A stretch of DNA of 64,000 nt from Wenzhouxiangella sp. XN201 (GTDB lineage: Bacteria > Pseudomonadota > Gammaproteobacteria > Xanthomonadales > Wenzhouxiangellaceae). Position 1 is the stretch's first letter; each line of letters opens with the position of its first letter. The notes beneath the pieces were generated by a model that ran no database searches, was not told the origin of the DNA, and saw only the letters and a program-made list of their open reading frames with translations. Shown piece after piece: positions 6,787 to 15,287 of this stretch. The position numbers and the translations under genes are program-made. Location: assembly GCF_011008905.1 (NCBI RefSeq), contig NZ_JAAIVI010000017.1, positions 496,001-560,000 of the forward strand, written 5' to 3'.

Positions 6787-8118
6787 TCAGCTGAAATTGC
6801 CGATATCCTGAAGAAGCTTTTTAGTCTCCCTGTCGACCCTCTTATGGAATCGCAGCCTTACTTCGTCATTGCTTAGCTGTTGGACATTTTCCCCATAGTA
6901 GTCTTCTAGTAAATTCCGCATTTTTGAAATGGAGTAGTCGTCGAAGTTTGGAATATAGTTGGTTTCATGCCTGCGATGATTCGTTTCAAAAAATGTCCGA
7001 ACGAACTTTTTCGGAGTGAAGTCAGCATTAAACCGCTTACATAGCTTCATTACGAAAGCATCCAAAGAATGCAAAAGTGGTTCGTCGTTAATTTCCGAAA
7101 AATAGATAAGCCAGCCCCTTCGTTTTCCCTCGAAAACGCAGCCTGTGATACGTAAATTGATACGCCACTGGAGGTAATTTAAGTCTTTTTGTTTTGCATG
7201 TCTAAAAGAAGTGAAAAGCGAAATTATGGATTCCCGGAGTTTGGTAATTGATAGTTCGCGCGGGCGGATACTGTTTGTGTCGAAGATGTATCCGAGGTAG
7301 GGAAAGGGGTCCGTAGCATCTCCACATACAGTCTTTCGTTCCGGATCGTTGAGCGGGTGAATCTTTAGGCCTAGTCGCCGGAAGCGAACTCTAAGCTCCT
7401 CATGCACCGTTTCACGGTTGCCTGAGTCCAGTAAGATGAGGACGTCATCGACAAATCGGAAATAGCGCATGTTTTGCTGTTTCCTGTAGTGGCCATCCAG
7501 GTTTTTTAGATAAAGGTCAGCAAGAAGATTTGATACCGATAGACCTTGGGGAACACCAAGTGTTGATAGCGGGCCTTTGTGTCTTTGATGAGATACGGAA
7601 GGCTGCGCGATCGCGTCCGCTACAAGATTTAGAGCGCGTGGATCACGGATCCGCTTCCTTAAGCGAGTCAGTAGTTCTTGGTGCTTTATGGAGGGATAAA
7701 AGTTCCTTATATCTGATTTTATGTACCCGAGAGGAGGGCGGGCCTGAATCTCCCTCTTTGTATCCGCAACAATTTTTTGTGGAAGGTGGTTATTTAGATC
7801 TGTTGAGAATCGACTCGCGATCAACTGGCTTAGGGCCTTTAAGACCAGTCGGTCTCGTACAGTTGGAATGGAAATTTCTCGCGGGGCTTTACCTCTCCCT
7901 TTGCTAATCAGGCGCAACTTATATCGTGTGAATGAAAAGTCTCCATTAAGGCACTTTTTGGATATTGTCGAGATGTTCTCTTTAAGGGAAGTTTCGAATA
8001 CAACAGCTCTTACGTTATCAACTCCAGTTGAGCTGGTGTGTTTGATATGAGTGTTCCAAATGTGCAGAAGCGAGGTTTCGCTAAATGTTTCTTCAAATTC
8101 TTTAGCTACGGTCTTCAT
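6787..8118 (-). CDS. Reverse transcriptase of a probable SLATT-linked defence system
   Basis: This 443-residue protein carries the ordered motifs of a prokaryotic reverse transcriptase: KGRGKAPREISIPTVRDRLV near residue 73; motif A GYIKSDIRNFYPSI with Asp near 136; motif B LGVPQGLSVSN near 187-197; motif C FRFVDDVLIL with the Asp pair at about 224-225; and PYLGYIFD near 273-280. No maturase, HNH endonuclease or other fused domain is visible, and no group II intron structure or retron msr/msd was noted, so it fits the unassigned/defence RT groups better. Its ATG is two bases after the SLATT stop, so the two are tightly coupled. AT-rich composition against the trp operon indicates horizontal acquisition. 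Catalysis is probable; the template is unknown. Confidence 0.9.
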   Translation of the reverse strand: MKTVAKEFEETFSETSLLHIWNTHIKHTSSTGVDNVRAVVFETSLKENISTISKKCLNGDFSFTRYKLRLISKGRGKAPREISIPTVRDRLVLKALSQLIASRFSTDLNNHLPQKIVADTKREIQARPPLGYIKSDIRNFYPSIKHQELLTRLRKRIRDPRALNLVADAIAQPSVSHQRHKGPLSTLGVPQGLSVSNLLADLYLKNLDGHYRKQQNMRYFRFVDDVLILLDSGNRETVHEELRVRFRRLGLKIHPLNDPERKTVCGDATDPFPYLGYIFDTNSIRPRELSITKLRESIISLFTSFRHAKQKDLNYLQWRINLRITGCVFEGKRRGWLIYFSEINDEPLLHSLDAFVMKLCKRFNADFTPKKFVRTFFETNHRRHETNYIPNFDDYSISKMRNLLEDYYGENVQQLSNDEVRLRFHKRVDRETKKLLQDIGNFS

Positions 8119-8120
8119 TT

Positions 8121-8693
8121 CTACATGTGCAAGGCTGCGGCTAAAACCAGTAAAGGCAGAGAGACGAGAAATAGTCCGGTAAGAAAACCTGCTGACAGGT
8201 GGAAAATGTAGGACACCACGACGTACAGCTTCGGTTCTCTGTCCAAATCGGTGGCATCATTCATCATAAATTCCTCACAGAGCGCTGCGAAGTAGTCTTT
8301 CTGGAGATGATTTTCAGATAGCGCGAGGATTTCACGGTATTCTTCAGCTGCGTCTGAAGCTCCGAGGTCTTGGCTTTCTAATCGAACGTATAAAGTGCTG
8401 AGTTCTTCGTACCCATGCTTAAATTGAATTGCCCGTTCCTTAAATCTGAATCCGTTCATGAATCCAGCGAGCGCTAAAACTAGAATGGAGAAGATGAGCC
8501 AAATAGTTTCGGCCGTTTGGTCTCCTGTTGCTATATTCAAGTAGTAAACACTAGCTGCAACGGCTGAGAACGAATACCAAAGCAGGAGAGCGTTAAAAAA
8601 AGCGTTATAGCGAAGCATCCGTTGCTCCGCTTTAATCCTTGCTTTTCTTGTCCACCAAATACGGCTCGCTAGTCGTGTTCCTTCATCCCCCAT
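8121..8693 (-). CDS. SLATT-like multi-pass membrane protein, likely effector of the RT system
   Basis: The ATG at 8693 has GGAG at good spacing and gives 190 residues. The frame also runs upstream to a TTG at 8888 without a ribosome site, through a sequence that looks like structured RNA, so the short form is preferred. A basic amphipathic start (RIWWTRKARIKAEQRMLRY) leads into hydrophobic segments at about residues 32-52, 64-82 and 156-188. A helix with RFKERAIQFKHGYEELSTLY sits between the second and third. This matches the SLATT group, described as membrane effectors of nucleotide-signal and RT-linked conflict systems. Membrane damage after infection is the expected role, by inference. Confidence 0.75.
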   Translation of the reverse strand: MGDEGTRLASRIWWTRKARIKAEQRMLRYNAFFNALLLWYSFSAVAASVYYLNIATGDQTAETIWLIFSILVLALAGFMNGFRFKERAIQFKHGYEELSTLYVRLESQDLGASDAAEEYREILALSENHLQKDYFAALCEEFMMNDATDLDREPKLYVVVSYIFHLSAGFLTGLFLVSLPLLVLAAALHM

Positions 8694-8712
8694 GTTCGAT
8701 CTCCAAAAAAGA

Positions 8713-8849
8713 TGCTCCGGAGCGCCCAGCAAGTAGCAGTGTTTCGCCTCAACTTTTTGAGGCTTGTCGCGAGCGACAAGGAGTGATGACTCCTCTAGAT
8801 TAGTGTCGTCCAACAGGGACGGCTCCACATGGGAGCGCGCTCCGGAGCA
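8713..8849 (-). ncRNA. Candidate structured RNA upstream of SLATT-RT
   Basis: A perfect 13-bp inverted repeat (8713-8725 TGCTCCGGAGCGC with 8837-8849) encloses five successive hairpins. They are 8746-8763 (7 bp, GCCTCAA/TTGAGGC), 8764-8779 (TTGTCG/CGACAA), 8779-8794 (AGGAGT/ACTCCT), 8805-8823 (7 bp with one G-U) and 8822-8836 (GCTCC/GGAGC). The last two share two bases, so they may be alternatives. The element ends 20 bases before the SLATT start and lies downstream of a promoter-like sequence. Strand is assigned from the operon direction. It could be the RT's template or cofactor RNA, or a regulatory leader. Function is inferred. Confidence 0.65.
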
Positions 8850-8935
8850 ATAGCGGTTCCACCACCAATCATAACGAGGATATTGCAAGTTTCTGGGCCG
8901 CGCAACCCAAATTGAAGAACCAGAGAGAACTAGGG

Positions 8936-8962
8936 CATATATGGACGCCTCCCTCTCGTCAA
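8936..8962 (-). promoter_or_regulatory. Possible promoter of the RT-SLATT unit
   Basis: Read on the minus strand, TTGACG (8957-8962) and TATATG (8936-8941) are separated by 15 bases. The -35 box matches five of six positions; the spacing is shorter than ideal. Transcription would start near 8928 and run through the structured element into SLATT and RT. Confidence 0.4.
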
Positions 8963-9012
8963 GGGGATTTCGCCGCCTGATTGTTGCTGCCGCTGAACCG
9001 AATCAAGACGGA

Positions 9013-9095
9013 AGAACCAGGACACCCACGATTTTGCCGGGTGAATTGGTTTCGACTTGGTTGGCTGGGAAACTGAGAATGTTGTATTGGAAGTC
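9013..9095 (+). repeat. Dispersed repeat, left part
   Basis: It begins with GAACCAGGACACCCACGATT, then a diverged interior resembling the copy at 29898 (GGTTGGC, GAGAATG). No right terminus was found. Confidence 0.7.
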
Positions 9096-9207
9096 TTGAG
9101 AGGGGAAATCTGACGATTCGGGCGGCGGGCAGCGAGTCTGACGCCGATTTCGGCCACGGGATGGCGACGTGAGTGCCTGAGTCAGGGGTTGGGCCTTTAA
9201 CGGGACA

Positions 9208-9525
9208 CTACCAGGGCTGCGTCTGTTGCCTCAGTGTCTTGAGAACAAACTCTCCAGATACACCCTTCATCCATTGTTGGCCTAGATCAGAAGCCCTCAG
9301 TATGAGGGGTTCGGCTGAGCCAATCGGCCGGTAGTAGCGGCTTTCAGTTCCCTGGACACGATGCATCCACTCACGGGGATGTTTGGCAACCTGCCAACGT
9401 CCGTCCGGCGGAGCCTCCTCTGCTACGGAGAGTTTACCGGGCTCTACTTTCGAGGCGCACCAAAACGGGGGATTACCGGAGGAATTCTGCATTTCCTGCT
9501 TGCGCAGTTGAAGAATTCGTGCCAC
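9208..9525 (-). CDS. Doubtful reading frame across a repeat
   Basis: A 105-residue frame, not recognised. Its middle (QVAKHPREWMHRVQGTE and what follows) is also encoded, with substitutions, by the related DNA at 11545-11661. Either a real gene contributed to the repeat or the frame is an accident of it. No ribosome-binding site was identified. It is listed because the peptide similarity is preserved over about 39 residues without a gap. Confidence 0.2.
   Translation of the reverse strand: MARILQLRKQEMQNSSGNPPFWCASKVEPGKLSVAEEAPPDGRWQVAKHPREWMHRVQGTESRYYRPIGSAEPLILRASDLGQQWMKGVSGEFVLKTLRQQTQPW
9277..9393 (+). repeat. 117-bp direct repeat, first copy
   Basis: It aligns without gaps to 11545-11661, with 97 of 117 positions identical by hand count. 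The two copies flank the two-gene ImmA/IrrE module in the same orientation. The second copy lies inside the long dispersed repeat at 11349-11694. Confidence 0.8.
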
Positions 9526-9558
9526 AATTGAGGCGAAAAAACTTCAACTGGAGTGCCA

Positions 9559-10194
9559 GTGACACGCTCAGCAATCTACAAATCTGTCTTCGAGGTTCGA
9601 AACAAGCTGCACGACTTCGGCTGCGAGCCTTCGATTCTCCGAGATGTCGCCTTGGCGGCAACCGCGGCTCGAAATGAGGCCACGCCGCTCCATCCTCAGA
9701 ACGCACCAGGCCTGTTGTCGTATTTGGCGGGCGTGGCAAACCTTCGAGGCGCGTTTCTCAGGCTGAATGGCTGGGAAGGATACTCCGTGAAGGGAGTCGA
9801 GGGGGTCCAGAACAGCCAGCGTGGACTCATCATCCTTTTTCAGAACGTCGACTTTGCCTGCGGTGTCGTTGAGCCCCGTCCGATCTGTCCGAAGAGGGAA
9901 GGTGTCACCAAACTGGTCGACAACGGCACACTTTGCCTCTTTGAAGAAATGGCCGGTGAGGATGGGCTTCGTGAGAACAAGGAAGTGTGGTTCTTCTGCG
10001 TTTCGAACCGGAGTGAGGAGCCTCAGGCTGAGCTTTCACGACCGAGCAGGATCGAAGACGGCGCTTTTGGTAAGCTCCTTGAGCGAGTCTACATCCTGAC
10101 CGGCTCGGAGGACGACCCGCAGCCTTACGGCAAGGAGCAGGATTTAGTATCCGATAAAGATGATTTCGAAGTGTCGGTCACCAAGAAGGCGTAA
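9559..10194 (+). CDS. Unknown partner of the XRE-ImmA/IrrE protein
   Basis: This 211-residue protein was not recognised. The GTG at 9559 is preferred because GGAG lies six bases upstream; an in-frame GTG at 9553 would overlap that site. There is no signal peptide or membrane helix. The centre holds hydrophobic strands (RGLIILFQNVDFACGVV, GTLCLFEEM, EVWFFCVSN), and the C-terminal third is acidic and probably flexible. It ends two bases before the next gene's start, so the two form an operon. ImmA-type peptidases cut partner repressors or regulators, so this protein could be a substrate or a toxin controlled by it. That is inference from context only. Confidence 0.6.
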   Translation: MTRSAIYKSVFEVRNKLHDFGCEPSILRDVALAATAARNEATPLHPQNAPGLLSYLAGVANLRGAFLRLNGWEGYSVKGVEGVQNSQRGLIILFQNVDFACGVVEPRPICPKREGVTKLVDNGTLCLFEEMAGEDGLRENKEVWFFCVSNRSEEPQAELSRPSRIEDGAFGKLLERVYILTGSEDDPQPYGKEQDLVSDKDDFEVSVTKKA

Positions 10195-10196
10195 CC

Positions 10197-11273
10197 GTGT
10201 TCAACCCGACCCGACTCGTTTTCGCCAGGAAGCGGAGGAAGTTGACAGCGCGCCAGCTTGCCGAAAAGAGCGGGATTACGCCGCAATACCTCTCAATGAT
10301 CGAGAACGGCAAGGCTGAGAATGTCGAAGCCGACACGCTCAGGGCGATTGCTGCTCAGCTGAATTTCCCGTACGAGTTCTTCTTTGGGGACGATGTAGAG
10401 GTTCCCGGCGTCGACTCGATCAGCTTCAGGTCACTGTCAACCATGTCGGTAAAGGAAAAGGACGCTGCAGTCAATTCAGGGGCGCTGGCACTGCAGCTAT
10501 CCGACTGGATAGAGGAACGGTTTAACCTACCGAAGGTCGATCTCCCTGATATGCGCTTTGAGGGCGATCCACAGGCCGCGGCCCGATCGTTGCGGACTTA
10601 TTGGGGAATCGGCGAACGGCCGGTCTCTAATGTCATCAAGCTGCTGGAGTCCAAGGGTGTTCGTATTTTCTCGTTGGCGGAAGACACGCGGAACGTGGAT
10701 GCGTTCTCGTGCTGGCGAAACGACCGACCTTTTATTTTCTTGAACACTTTCAAAACGGCGGAGCGGAGCCGCTTCGACGCCATGCACGAATTGGGGCACT
10801 TGGTCCTGCATCGCCATGGTAAGCCCCAAGGCAGAGAAGCGGAGAAGGAGGCGGATCAGTTCGCATCCTTCTTCCTCATTCCGACTATGGACATGCTGGG
10901 CAACGTTCCTTCGCATGTTCGATCGCTTAGCCAGCTTGTCAAGCTCAAGAAGCGGTGGGGCGTTTCGGTCGCAGCACTGGCCTATCGACTCCACAAAGAG
11001 GGCATTCTCAGCGATTGGCAGTACCGGGGATTCTGCATTGAAATCCGATCGACTATGAAGGACTCAGAGCCTGAAGGCATGGAAAGAGAGCGTTCTGTTG
11101 TGCTTCAGAAGGTGTTTCAGGAACTTTGGAAGGAGCGAACTACCCGCTCGCACGTAGCCAAGGAGCTTTCTCTTCCAGTCGAGGAGTTAGATAACTTGGT
11201 CTTCAGCCTGCTGGACCCACCGAGCCCCACAGCCAAGGGCGCCCTCGGGAAGCCCCAACTCAGCCTGGCCTGA
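10197..11273 (+). CDS. XRE-family regulator fused to an ImmA/IrrE (M78-like) metallopeptidase
   Basis: This 358-residue protein starts at GTG two bases after the preceding stop. Residues about 5-60 are an XRE helix-turn-helix (RKLTARQLAEKSGITPQYLS). A zinc metallopeptidase domain follows, with MHELGHLVLH (HExxH at about 197-201) and the downstream acidic ligand in EKEADQFASFF near 217-226. The C-terminal 90 residues are helical and unassigned. Fusions of this kind regulate mobile elements, stress responses or toxin-antitoxin modules by DNA binding combined with cleavage of a partner. The pair is AT-richer than the core genes and flanked by repeats, suggesting a mobile accessory module. Confidence 0.88.
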   Translation: MFNPTRLVFARKRRKLTARQLAEKSGITPQYLSMIENGKAENVEADTLRAIAAQLNFPYEFFFGDDVEVPGVDSISFRSLSTMSVKEKDAAVNSGALALQLSDWIEERFNLPKVDLPDMRFEGDPQAAARSLRTYWGIGERPVSNVIKLLESKGVRIFSLAEDTRNVDAFSCWRNDRPFIFLNTFKTAERSRFDAMHELGHLVLHRHGKPQGREAEKEADQFASFFLIPTMDMLGNVPSHVRSLSQLVKLKKRWGVSVAALAYRLHKEGILSDWQYRGFCIEIRSTMKDSEPEGMERERSVVLQKVFQELWKERTTRSHVAKELSLPVEELDNLVFSLLDPPSPTAKGALGKPQLSLA

Positions 11274-11348: not shown

Positions 11349-11694
11349 AAAACCAGGACACCCACGATTTTCTCGGATAAATCAGCCTCGGTGTGGTCGC
11401 CCGGAAATCAAAATCTGCTGAGGTTGGAGTCGAGGTGGCCCTGATTTGGCGTGTCGAGCGGCTCGCCGGAGGTCTGAGGCCGAACTCACGCACGGGCTGG
11501 CGCCCGGTTCATACCATTCAACCGGAGGTCCAGATTAGGTCGGGGTTGGCCCAGATCAGCAGCCTTCAGCATCAACGCTTCGGCTGAGCCAATCGCCCGG
11601 TAGCAGCGGCATTCAGTTCCTTGGACGCGATGCATCCATTCGCGAGGGTGCCGGGCAACCTGAAATTCCCTAAAAGTCGTTGGTGTCCTGGATT
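11349..11694 (+). repeat. Long copy of the dispersed repeat (about 346 bp)
   Basis: The left terminus GAAAACCAGGACACCCACGA and right terminus GTTGGTGTCCTGGATT bracket an interior with AAATCTGCTGA, GATTTGGCGTGTCGAGCGG and GCTGGCGCCCGG. That interior is shared with copies at 46595 and 53295. The 117-bp direct repeat (second copy) is its right third. Confidence 0.8.
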
Positions 11695-13049: not shown

Positions 13050-15287
13050 ATGTCAGACCGTTTCCCCGGCTTGCTCTCGGTGTTCAGTGCAACCATTCAG
13101 TGGTCTCTCTGTGTCCTCATTCTGGTCGGGCTGACTGCCTGCGAGGCCGATCAGGATGTGGAAGTGGGCGAGGCCGATCAGGTTGTGGAAGTGGGCGAGG
13201 CCGATCAGGTTGTGGAAGTGGGCGAGGACGATGTCGGTGGTGTGGTCACGGGACCAGACGGGCCGGAGGCAGGGGTATGGGTGATCGCCGAAACCCACGA
13301 TCTGCCGACGCGGTTCGCCCGCATCGTGGTCACCGACGAGGAGGGTCGCTATCTGGTCCCTGATCTTCCCGATGCCACCTATGAGATCTGGGTGCGGGGC
13401 TACGGACTTGTGGACTCTCCGAAGCAGGAGGCGACCCCGGGCACGTCACTTGATCTGGAGGCGGTCGAAGCCCCCGATCCACAAGTGGCGGCGCAGTACT
13501 ATCCGGCCGGATACTGGCTCTCTCTGCTCGAGGTCCCCTCCAGGGACGCGTTCCCGGGCACCGGCCAGGACGGCAACGGGTTTTCTGCCAACATCCAGCA
13601 CCGGGCCGGCTTCCTGAGCTTCCTCAACTTCAGCTGCCTGGGGTGCCACGGCATGGGTACCCGGGGGACGCGCGAGTTTCACCCGGAGATGGGTGAGTTC
13701 GAGACCCACAGGGAGGCGTGGGAGCGACGCATCAAGTCCGGCCAGGCCGGCGCGAGCATGATGGGGAGTACCAACATGATGGGTTGGGACGGCACACTCC
13801 AGATGTTCGCGAACTGGACGCAGGCGATCGCCGATGGTGCCTTGCCGCCCGAGCCGCCCCGTCCGCAGGGCCTCGAGCGAAACGTGGTCATCACCCAGTG
13901 GGATTGGGCCGGTCCCCAGGACTATCTCCACGACCTGGTCTCGACAGACCGCCGGGATCCGACCGTCAATTCCGACGGCAAGCTCTATGGGGCACTGGAA
14001 GCCAGTGCCGACTACCTGCCCGTGCTGGATCCGAAAGTCCACGAGGCGAGCCGGATTCCCCTGCATACCCTCGAGCCGCATCCGCCGATCGCACCGGCTC
14101 AGTCGATGCCCGCCCCGTCCCCGTACTGGGGAGAGGAACTGATCTGGGACAGTCGAACCAACGTCCATAACCCGATGATCGATGCGGAGGGCCGGGTATG
14201 GATCACGGCCACAGCGCGGGCCTTCGAAACCCCCGATTACTGCCGGGAGGGTTCGGATCATCCTTCCGCCCAGGCATTCCCGCTCGAGCGCTCCACGCGG
14301 CACCTGGGCGTCTATGAGCCCGAAAGCGGGGAGTACACGCCGATTCCCACGTGCTTCAGTACGCACCACCTGATGTTTGCCGAGGACGAGCAGGACACGC
14401 TGTGGACGAGCGGGGGCGGCCCGGTGATCGGCTATCTGGATACAAAGGAGTACCTGGAGACCGGTGACGAGGAAGCCGCCCAGGGGTGGACGCCGTTCAT
14501 CCTGGATACGAACGGCAACGGCAAGCGCGACGACTACGTGGAGCCGGATCAAGCGGTGGATCCGGAGCTGGACAAGCGGATCACGCCCGGCTTCTACGGC
14601 CTCTATGCCGTTGCCCCGGCAGCGGACGGCTCGGTCTGGGGCTCCATGCCGGGCTACCCGGGCGGCCTTGTACGCATCGAGCCCGGGGAGGATCCGGCCC
14701 GAACGGCCCTTACTGAGTACTACGCTTTGCCCCTGGACGATGAAGGAGGGCCGATCGAGGGCTATTCCCCCCGCGGCATGGATATCGACCGCAATGGGGT
14801 GGCGTGGGTAGCCCTCGGCAGCGGTCACCTGGGCCGGTTCGACCGCTCGGCGTGCCAGGGACCGCTCAACGGCCCGGATGCCACCGGTCAGCATTGCCCG
14901 GAAGGGTGGACGTTCTACGAGGAGCCGCTCCCCCAGCTCAAAGGGCTGGAGGATGAGTCTGGAAGTGCTGAAGCCAGTTATTACACCTGGGTTGACCAGC
15001 ACGACGTGCTCGGCCTCGGGCCGAATACGCCCATCAACACGGGCAACGAGTCCGAGGGCCTGCTTGTCTGGAACGATGGGGAATGGGTCGTGTTGCGCGT
15101 GCCTTATCCCACCGGCTTCTACACGAAGTGGATGGACGGTCGGATCGACGATCCGGGCGCCGGCTGGAAAGGCCGCGCGGTCTGGGCGACGCTGAGTACC
15201 CGCGCGCCGTTCCACACCGAGACCGGCAAGGGTACTACCAGCCAGGTCTACAAATTCCAGTTACGGCCCGATCCGCTGGCAAACTGA
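13050..15287 (+). CDS. Lipoprotein with a haem-c motif and a lyase-like beta-propeller
   Basis: This 745-residue protein has a lipobox (LVGLTAC, Cys near residue 31), followed by a three-fold nine-residue repeat and a carboxypeptidase-regulatory-like beta domain (GVVTGPDGPEAGVWVIAET). A single CLGCH motif near residues 196-200 should bind haem c covalently. The C-terminal half has repeated strand patterns (MIDAEGRVWITA, DIDRNGVAWVALGSGHLGRF) resembling the Vgb/streptogramin-lyase-type propeller. An exported redox or sensing protein is likely; substrate and partner are unknown. It stands alone behind its own promoter. Confidence 0.75.
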   Translation: MSDRFPGLLSVFSATIQWSLCVLILVGLTACEADQDVEVGEADQVVEVGEADQVVEVGEDDVGGVVTGPDGPEAGVWVIAETHDLPTRFARIVVTDEEGRYLVPDLPDATYEIWVRGYGLVDSPKQEATPGTSLDLEAVEAPDPQVAAQYYPAGYWLSLLEVPSRDAFPGTGQDGNGFSANIQHRAGFLSFLNFSCLGCHGMGTRGTREFHPEMGEFETHREAWERRIKSGQAGASMMGSTNMMGWDGTLQMFANWTQAIADGALPPEPPRPQGLERNVVITQWDWAGPQDYLHDLVSTDRRDPTVNSDGKLYGALEASADYLPVLDPKVHEASRIPLHTLEPHPPIAPAQSMPAPSPYWGEELIWDSRTNVHNPMIDAEGRVWITATARAFETPDYCREGSDHPSAQAFPLERSTRHLGVYEPESGEYTPIPTCFSTHHLMFAEDEQDTLWTSGGGPVIGYLDTKEYLETGDEEAAQGWTPFILDTNGNGKRDDYVEPDQAVDPELDKRITPGFYGLYAVAPAADGSVWGSMPGYPGGLVRIEPGEDPARTALTEYYALPLDDEGGPIEGYSPRGMDIDRNGVAWVALGSGHLGRFDRSACQGPLNGPDATGQHCPEGWTFYEEPLPQLKGLEDESGSAEASYYTWVDQHDVLGLGPNTPINTGNESEGLLVWNDGEWVVLRVPYPTGFYTKWMDGRIDDPGAGWKGRAVWATLSTRAPFHTETGKGTTSQVYKFQLRPDPLAN
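13143..13223 (+). repeat. In-frame 27-bp tandem repeat (three units)
   Basis: The units encode EADQDVEVG, EADQVVEVG and EADQVVEVG directly after the lipidated Cys. The last two units are almost identical, so unit number may vary between strains and change the tether length. Confidence 0.85.

What the first reader, a model, noticed from the sequence alone, without database searches (positions are those of the whole stretch)
8713..8849. 137-nt element with a 13-bp closing stem and five consecutive hairpins
The perfect inverted repeat at 8713-8725 and 8837-8849 encloses five hairpins of 5-7 bp covering almost every base from 8746 to 8836. Such dense nested pairing is not expected in a coding 5' region and argues against the longer SLATT reading from 8888. 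Its order and position suit a template or cofactor RNA for the RT.
Basis: seen in the sequence. Interest (0 to 1): 0.9.

Follow-up and report, generated by a model that had tools for sequence, protein, structure and literature searches.

The report
Template RNA of DRT10 defence operon
This stretch very probably makes a small folded RNA that a bacterial anti-virus enzyme, a distant cousin of telomerase, copies over and over into repetitive DNA; the same kind of RNA was described in 2025, so this is a new, divergent example of a known kind.

Summary
A 137-nt element (minus strand, 8849 to 8713) has a perfect 13-bp closing stem and five hairpins; it folds far below shuffled controls (z -6.7). It lies directly upstream of a SLATT gene (8121-8693) and a UG17 reverse transcriptase (6787-8118). 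That ncRNA-SLATT-RT order is the DRT10 anti-phage system of an October 2025 preprint (PMC12632851). Relatives with RTs 34-46% identical carry the same fold at the same place in different sequence: 23 of 27 modelled pairs show changes on both sides that keep pairing (0 of 500 shuffles). A covariance model built without the window finds the element as its only hit in 64 kb. The RT ends in serine, the residue from which Eco3DRT10 primes. In 29 of 31 loops that I cut out, a repeated segment starts at the fourth base after the last hairpin. Applied here, that gives AC-ACUGCU-AC and a predicted product (AGCAGTGT)n; a 7-nt register, (AGTAGCA)n, is the rival. Nothing was tested at the bench. Verdict: real; DRT10 ncRNA; new member of a known kind.

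The parts
8713..8849 (-). DRT10-type ncRNA, 137 nt, read 8849 to 8713 (boundaries taken as the closing stem; true transcript ends not mapped)
   Evidence: fold z -6.72; leave-window-out covariance model hit 8718-8844, 36 bits, E 1.8e-5; covariation
8837..8849 (-). closing stem P1, 5' arm
   Evidence: 13 perfect pairs; all 8 modelled P1 pairs show changes on both sides in relatives
8713..8725 (-). closing stem P1, 3' arm
   Evidence: as 5' arm
8822..8836 (-). hairpin H1 (5 bp)
   Evidence: covarying helix 2
8807..8821 (-). hairpin H2 (5 bp)
   Evidence: helix 3 (3 of 6 pairs with changes on both sides)
8795..8806 (-). single-stranded junction with the conserved CUAAU
   Evidence: CUAAU columns invariant in A3 (10 sequences) and A6 (8 sequences)
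8779..8794 (-). hairpin H3 (6 bp)
   Evidence: covarying helix 4
8765..8778 (-). hairpin H4 (5 bp)
   Evidence: not among the modelled pairs of R1 or R2, so its covariation was not tested
8746..8763 (-). hairpin H5 (7 bp), counterpart of the published SL5 / template-boundary stem
   Evidence: helix 5, 98.6% of cells paired; SL5 role from PMC12632851
8726..8745 (-). template loop GAAACACUGCUACUUGCUGG
   Evidence: position corresponds to the published template loop
8733..8742 (-). predicted A-B-A' = AC-ACUGCU-AC, giving cDNA (AGCAGTGT)n; inferred
   Evidence: A starts at loop position 4 as in 29 of 31 loops; same layout in E. coli L104
8728..8738 (-). alternative A-B-A' = UGCU-ACU-UGCU, giving cDNA (AGTAGCA)n; inferred
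   Evidence: longest repeat in the loop; shuffle P 0.147 for this loop alone
8121..8693 (-). SLATT_5 membrane protein, 190 aa, proposed start ATG 8693-8691
   Evidence: Pfam SLATT_5 1.7e-24, NCBIfam NF033631 3.7e-37, PADLOC RTasSLATT 2.8e-47
6787..8118 (-). UG17 (DRT10) reverse transcriptase, 443 aa, FVDD active-site motif, C-terminal Ser443
   Evidence: PADLOC RT_UG17 1.1e-155 over 4-443

Best explanation
The element is the noncoding RNA of a DRT10 (UG17) anti-phage operon: ncRNA (8849-8713), SLATT membrane protein (8693-8121), RT (8118-6787), all on the minus strand. Shown here: the fold, its conservation by compensatory change, its place before SLATT and RT, the UG17 family of the RT and its C-terminal serine. 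Inferred from the published DRT10 experiments: the RT binds this RNA, starts DNA synthesis from its own C-terminal Ser443, copies the loop after H5 up to a boundary set by H5, lets the DNA go, re-anneals its 3' end to A' and repeats, making single-stranded tandem-repeat DNA. By the three-base spacer seen in relatives the unit here should be 8 nt, (AGCAGTGT)n. The DNA is proposed in the paper to act on the SLATT protein; how is unknown there as well.
For: UG17 RT at 1.1e-155 and RT-associated SLATT. Fold z -6.72, 0 of 200 shuffles. Eleven RT relatives, 29-44% identical, and 54 of the 80 loci listed at E <= 1e-56 (92 found, 80 kept). Closing stems of 8-15 bp and of different sequence at the corresponding place in many of them. 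Covariation: 20 of 27 pairs with compensatory change in 10 MAFFT-aligned sequences; in 15 distinct model-aligned sequences 91.7% of cells paired, 23 of 27 pairs changed on both sides, 0 of 500 shuffles on all five measures, slid controls 37-52% paired. Model R2, built from 8 relatives without the window, has one hit in the 64 kb at E up to 10: 8718-8844 minus, 36 bits, E 1.8e-5. Published: DRT10 = ncRNA upstream of SLATT + SLATT + RT, 137-nt ncRNA in Eco3, A-B-A', SL5, C-terminal Ser/Tyr primer. Locus L054 holds the exact published Eco3 template in a comparable fold upstream of its RT. 63 of 67 RT frames end in Ser or Tyr, many of them near-copies. A repeat of at least 2 nt starts at loop position 4 in 29 of 31 loops, shuffle mean 12.5, 0 of 1000. 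RT tree: window in a 9-row clade whose rows I all labelled five-hairpin (98 SH-aLRT, quick tree).
Against: No transcript, RNA binding, cDNA or defence data exist here for this locus. No sigma-70-like promoter was found in 8650-9200. R1 matched 17 of 51 sources at E up to 1, three of them only at 0.008-0.08; R2 matched 4 of 34 other sources and missed the Eco3-like loci L054, L102 and L013 and the five-hairpin L030, so the link to the published Eco3 RNA rests on position, architecture and the L054 template, not on a model match. The longest repeat in the window's loop (UGCU) is not at the usual position, the positional reading has only a 2-nt A, and the loop's repeat is not significant alone (P 0.147). 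R2 run by the genome search on the own genome returned nothing, although the direct search found the element. The window's GAA replaces the GUU that 22 of 31 loops have (counted by eye). Loops were cut out by eye. The published consensus is described with four small stem-loops; this RNA has five.
Confidence: 0.93

Rival explanations
1. Same DRT10 ncRNA, but with a different register: the 4-nt repeat UGCU-ACU-UGCU (8738-8728) or ACU-GCU-ACU (8740-8732) sets the product, (AGTAGCA)n or (AGCAGT)n, perhaps as a mixture.
For: UGCU is the longest repeat in the loop. The paper reports imprecise repeats in Eco1DRT10 from a cryptic re-annealing site.
Against: A would start at loop position 8 (or 6), whereas a repeat starts at position 4 in 29 of 31 loops; over all 31 loops, starts at positions 6-8 are not clearly enriched. 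In the ten-loop clade subset position 6 is mildly enriched (13-15 of 1000 shuffles), so this is not closed.
Confidence: 0.25
2. Retron-type msr-msd RNA: the inverted repeats are a1/a2 and one hairpin is copied once into msDNA.
For: Folded RNA with terminal inverted repeats upstream of an RT operon.
Against: The RT is UG17 (517 bits); the one retron model listed (St85) scores 42 bits against a cut-off of 235. No Rfam family reached its gathering score in the window. The conserved features are those of DRT10.
Confidence: 0.03
3. A structured 5' leader or attenuator that regulates SLATT-RT translation or transcription and is not an RT cofactor.
For: It ends 19 nt before the SLATT ATG, and the stem is followed by UCUUUUUU; one terminator-like site, 8729-8717.
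Against: Terminator-like sites are expected at 0.8 per shuffle of the region, and a long U-run after the stem is seen in few of the 19 sequences listed. The E. coli DRT10 RNAs are bound by the RT and template DNA. A leader role in addition is not excluded.
Confidence: 0.04
4. Part of a longer SLATT coding sequence starting at 8888.
For: The frame is open from 8888.
Against: SLATT homology starts at residue 72. In relatives the element ends shortly before the SLATT start, its length varies without regard to frame, and base pairing is conserved while sequence is not.
Confidence: 0.01

Closest known systems
DRT10 / UG17 ncRNA, Eco3DRT10 type (PMC12632851)
   Same: ncRNA upstream of SLATT and UG17 RT; 137 nt; long closing stem; last hairpin before a ~20-nt template loop; repeat starting three bases after that hairpin; RT ends in Ser.
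   Different: L054, which holds the Eco3 template, folds with four hairpins (one bulged hairpin in place of H1+H2) and has GAUAAU where the window has CUAAU. The window RT is 33-38% identical to RTs I assigned to this type (L013). Predicted A is 2 nt rather than 4. Model R2 does not match L054, L102 or L013.
Five-hairpin DRT10 ncRNAs (E. coli L104, Marinobacter L009, Pseudoalteromonas L012); probably the paper's Eco1-like type
   Same: Five hairpins, CUAAU junction, AC-N6-AC template layout with 8-nt period also in L104 and L023; window RT in the same clade as L009, L012 and others (L104 was not in the tree). L104's RT is 444 aa ending in Tyr, matching the residue the paper gives for Eco1DRT10 (Y444).
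   Different: Window RT is the first branch of the clade and ends in Ser; L104, L009, L012, L025 and L027 end in Tyr, L022, L023, L024 and L051 in Ser. Loop starts GAA instead of GUU. That L104 corresponds to Eco1 is my inference.
Telomerase RNA
   Same: Works alike by the paper's argument: template plus alignment segment plus boundary stem.
   Different: Not tested here; different RNA, primer and enzyme.
DRT9 and DRT3 ncRNAs
   Same: ncRNAs of other UG RT systems with a template loop at a like position.
   Different: DRT9 copies a poly-U tract and DRT3a an ACACAC motif; the window loop has neither.

Membership tests
DRT10 (UG17) | RT of the UG17 group | tested here: met
   PADLOC RT_UG17 E 1.1e-155, 4-443 of 443; next family Drt3a 6.4e-39
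DRT10 (UG17) | SLATT gene adjacent | tested here: met
   SLATT_5 / RTasSLATT at 8121-8693
DRT10 (UG17) | Structured ncRNA region upstream of SLATT | tested here: met
   conserved structure; that it is transcribed was not testable
DRT10 (UG17) | Central stem with smaller stem-loops, last one before the template loop | tested here: met
   P1 + H1-H5 + loop; five small hairpins where the Eco3 consensus is described with four
DRT10 (UG17) | A-B-A' pattern in the template loop | tested here: inconclusive
   Present in three registers, but repeats this short in one 20-nt loop are not rare by chance (P 0.147 for the 4-nt one); the positional rule over 31 loops is significant
DRT10 (UG17) | C-terminal Ser or Tyr as primer | tested here: met
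   last residue Ser443; priming itself not testable
DRT10 (UG17) | RT binds the ncRNA and makes tandem-repeat cDNA; phage defence | not testable with these tools
   needs RIP-seq, miniprep-seq, plaque assays
Retron | Retron-type RT | tested here: not met
   St85 retron model 41.9 bits, cut-off 235; UG17 516.7 bits
DRT9 | poly-U template loop; Drt9 RT | tested here: not met
   no U run above 2 in the loop (sequence); Drt9 model 42.3 bits against 516.7 for UG17
DRT3 | ACACAC template; Drt3a RT | tested here: not met
   loop lacks ACACAC; Drt3a 132.6 bits; NF041747 106 bits, cut-off 200

The most novel reading that the evidence does not exclude
A deep-branching serine-ended DRT10 of the five-hairpin kind whose loop (ACUGCU-ACUUGCU) holds overlapping re-annealing registers, so that it makes mixed 8-, 7- and 6-nt repeat DNA; and a general rule that DRT10 templates begin exactly three bases after the boundary hairpin, which would let products be predicted from sequence alone.
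Probability: 0.35. Interest if true: 0.5.

Novelty: new member of a known kind. Interest (0 to 1): 0.42.

Why it matters
A reader with no tools recovered a telomerase-like template RNA from raw sequence, and the comparison now gives it a checkable prediction of the repeat unit. The three-base spacer between the boundary hairpin and A (29 of 31 loops) is a simple rule that could turn DRT10 ncRNA sequences into predicted DNA products, and it can be tested on the published systems with known products. I did not find the rule stated in the parts of PMC12632851 that I read; its supplement was not opened.

Tried and rejected
Rfam at gathering thresholds: 0 matches in the window. tRNA/tmRNA: none. 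Genome contigs with the window RT: 2 loci. Viral contigs with the window RT alone: no relative; with alignment A1 it worked. Phage records: 56 records with distant RTs, top row about 24% identity over 85% of the query. The 61 nearest genomes (own included): 17 match the UG17 model at 1e-3, but apart from the window's own the best is 2.8e-37; class sample: 2 of 369, own included, at 1e-60; phylum sample: 5 of 398, own included, at 1e-50, of which G444 and G541 are weak. Automatic stem picking chose a wrong stem in several loci (for example L009, L015, L016, L038, L054, L102); I corrected by position and sequence. L018 and L019 showed no comparable stem that I could recognise and no SLATT motif upstream; the SLATT motif search found one in 47 of 67 loci, but some misses have little upstream DNA and one, L015, is annotated as SLATT in its record. 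My first register (UGCU-ACU-UGCU, noted) was displaced by the positional test. Promoter scan: 0 found. L010 DNA against E. coli genomes: no match.

Rows dropped before counts: of 65 upstream regions, 9 were too short and 9 duplicate, leaving 47. Of these 47, 30 loops were used: 10 had a loop already represented (L026, L032, L034, L035, L038, L047, L048, L050, L061, L102) and 7 had no loop I could define with confidence (L016, L063, L067, L068, L070, L073, L075); L104 was added, giving 31. The loops of L010, L011, L014, L017, L058 and L066 have uncertain edges. Loops are related by descent, so the shuffle counts overstate independence. In one search positions 2, 3 and 5 are enriched too (repeats extend over neighbours), and in the ten-loop clade subset the summed length is higher at position 3 (33) and 2 (30) than at 4 (29), while the number of loops with a repeat is highest at 4 (10 of 10). 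In one search, 63 of 67 frames end in S or Y; three of these (L029, L072, L074) are shortened frames, and many are near-copies. For the RT tree 47 rows were kept, near-copies and short frames left out; the careful search did not finish, so the quick tree is used, and the hairpin labels are mine. Five-hairpin labels also fall outside the window's clade (L030, L011, L052).

Full report
What is there. On the minus strand 8849-8713 lies a 137-nt element with a perfect 13-bp closing stem and five hairpins. Its energy is -68.4 kcal/mol against -43.5 for shuffles, z -6.72, none of 200 as low. The plus strand also folds (z -5.87). Two longer stretches are outside the hairpins: the junction ACACUAAUCUAG (8806-8795) and a 20-nt loop GAAACACUGCUACUUGCUGG (8745-8726) between H5 and the closing stem.

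Setting. Downstream on the same strand are a SLATT protein and an RT. The RT is UG17 (PADLOC 1.1e-155), with an FVDD motif and Ser443 as its last residue. The SLATT protein matches SLATT_5 and the RT-associated SLATT models. The mechanical frame from 8888 is probably not the gene: SLATT homology begins at residue 72 of it, an ATG at 8693-8691 is preceded by GGAGA, and several relatives have an ATG at the corresponding place.

Published counterpart. A preprint held in PMC (PMC12632851; I read the abstract, parts 1-4 of 8 of the text and part 1 of 2 of the figure legends, and passages) names UG17 systems DRT10: an ncRNA upstream of SLATT (137 nt in Eco3DRT10), SLATT and RT, all needed for defence. 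[quoted passage not shown] I saw only passages of PMC13174585, which calls DRT3a repeat synthesis analogous to DRT10, and of PMC8934634, which reports SLATT_5 with 82% of UG17 RTs. Among the papers listed by three searches (8 of 8, 3 of 3 and 20 of 72 listed) I saw no other functional study of DRT10; preprints outside PMC and most subscription papers are not in that library.

Homologues. RT relatives came from genome contigs, whole genomes, plasmids, IMG/VR contigs and E. coli. In many loci with enough upstream DNA a long inverted repeat of different sequence but a similar inner plan lies about 550-830 bases before the RT start, before SLATT. I sorted them by eye into two plans: five hairpins with CUAAU (window, L009, L012, L022-L025, L027, L030, L051, also L011, L052 and E. 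coli L104) and four hairpins (L013, L031-L036, L050, L053, L054 and others). L054 contains the exact published Eco3 template CAATGATTCCAAT in a comparable fold, which ties the four-hairpin set to the experimentally defined RNA.

Covariation and an independent model. In ten five-hairpin sequences 20 of 27 consensus pairs have a compensatory change. Model R1, built from these ten with the window among them, gave 17 matches at E up to 1 in 51 sources, the last three at 0.008-0.08. On its 15 distinct rows 91.7% of cells are paired, 23 of 27 pairs change on both sides, and 0 of 500 shuffles reach any of the five measures; slid controls pair 37-52%. That alignment was fitted to the model, so it leans to the structure; one search was counted on a MAFFT alignment, for which I had trimmed the sequences to eight closing pairs. 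Model R2 was built from eight relatives without the window and finds 8718-8844 minus as its only hit in the 64 kb (36 bits, E 1.8e-5). The same model through the whole-genome tool returned nothing, while R1 returned the element alone. R2 gives 85.6 bits on the E. coli locus L104; of 34 other sources it matched 4 at E up to 1 (L065, L052, L014, L011), and not the Eco3-like L054, L102 or L013, nor L030.

Template. Taking the longest repeat in each loop, 21 of 30 loops have a repeat of 4 or more; the summed length is 117 against a shuffle mean of 99 (0 of 2000), but the window alone is not significant (P 0.147). Fixing the start of A is more telling: with A at the fourth base after H5, 29 of 31 loops have a repeat of at least 2 nt, shuffle mean 12.5, 0 of 1000; without the window 28 of 30. 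Positions 2, 3 and 5 are enriched as well, in fewer loops (20, 26 and 21 of 31), and the signal is gone at positions 7-8. In L054, with the Eco3 template, the spacer is also three bases (GUU, then CAAU). For the window this gives GAA|AC-ACUGCU-AC, the same layout as E. coli L104 (GUU|AC-ACGAUU-AC) and L023. The predicted cDNA is (AGCAGTGT)n. The UGCU-ACU-UGCU register remains a rival. The loops were cut by eye and are related by descent, so the counts are a guide, not a probability.

RT relationships. In a quick tree of 47 RTs the window RT is the first branch of a nine-row clade, all labelled five-hairpin (98 SH-aLRT); the four-hairpin rows form one side of a branch (100); three further five-hairpin rows (L030, L011, L052) lie elsewhere. 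Within the window's clade the last residue is Ser in some (window, L022-L024, L051) and Tyr in others (L009, L012, L025, L027). L104's RT is 444 aa and ends in Tyr, as the paper gives for Eco1DRT10 (Y444), so the window's clade is probably the Eco1-like type; that identity is inferred. None of the 60 other genomes has a UG17 match of comparable score, and one other of the 369 has, which suggests horizontal gain.

Conclusion. The element is real and is the ncRNA of a DRT10 operon (0.93). It is a divergent new member of a kind made public in October 2025, not a new kind. What it adds is a positional rule for the template start and a specific, testable repeat unit. Expression, RT binding, the DNA product and defence are all untested here.

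Noticed in passing
9553-11273 (+): Beside the DRT10 operon, on the opposite strand, lie RmrT (9553-10194) and RmrA (10197-11273, HTH plus Peptidase_M78) by PADLOC (1.8e-37 and 4.3e-139; Pfam): a pair that I recall as RosmerTA (the system name comes from no call), so this looks like a small defence island.
   Followed up: partly
9276-9393 and 11545-11662: A 118-nt direct repeat (83% identical) flanks the RmrT/RmrA pair, 2269 bases apart; 57-nt repeats (61-74% alike) sharing GGACACCCA at 9015, 11285 and 11351 lie at the same edges. They could be borders of past insertion or REP-like elements.
   Followed up: no
8713-8725 and 8837-8849: Each arm of the closing stem holds the self-complementary 10-mer GCTCCGGAGC, so the stem is both an inverted and a direct repeat (sequence); a protein-binding role on DNA is not excluded.
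   Followed up: no
L067, L068, L073, L063, L018: A separate branch of UG17-like RTs without a SLATT motif found upstream and, in L067, L068 and L018, without a terminal Ser/Tyr; neither model matched there.
   Followed up: partly
13050-15287 (+): A 745-aa reading frame with near-identical short tandem repeats (EVGEADQVV) close to its N-terminus.
   Followed up: no
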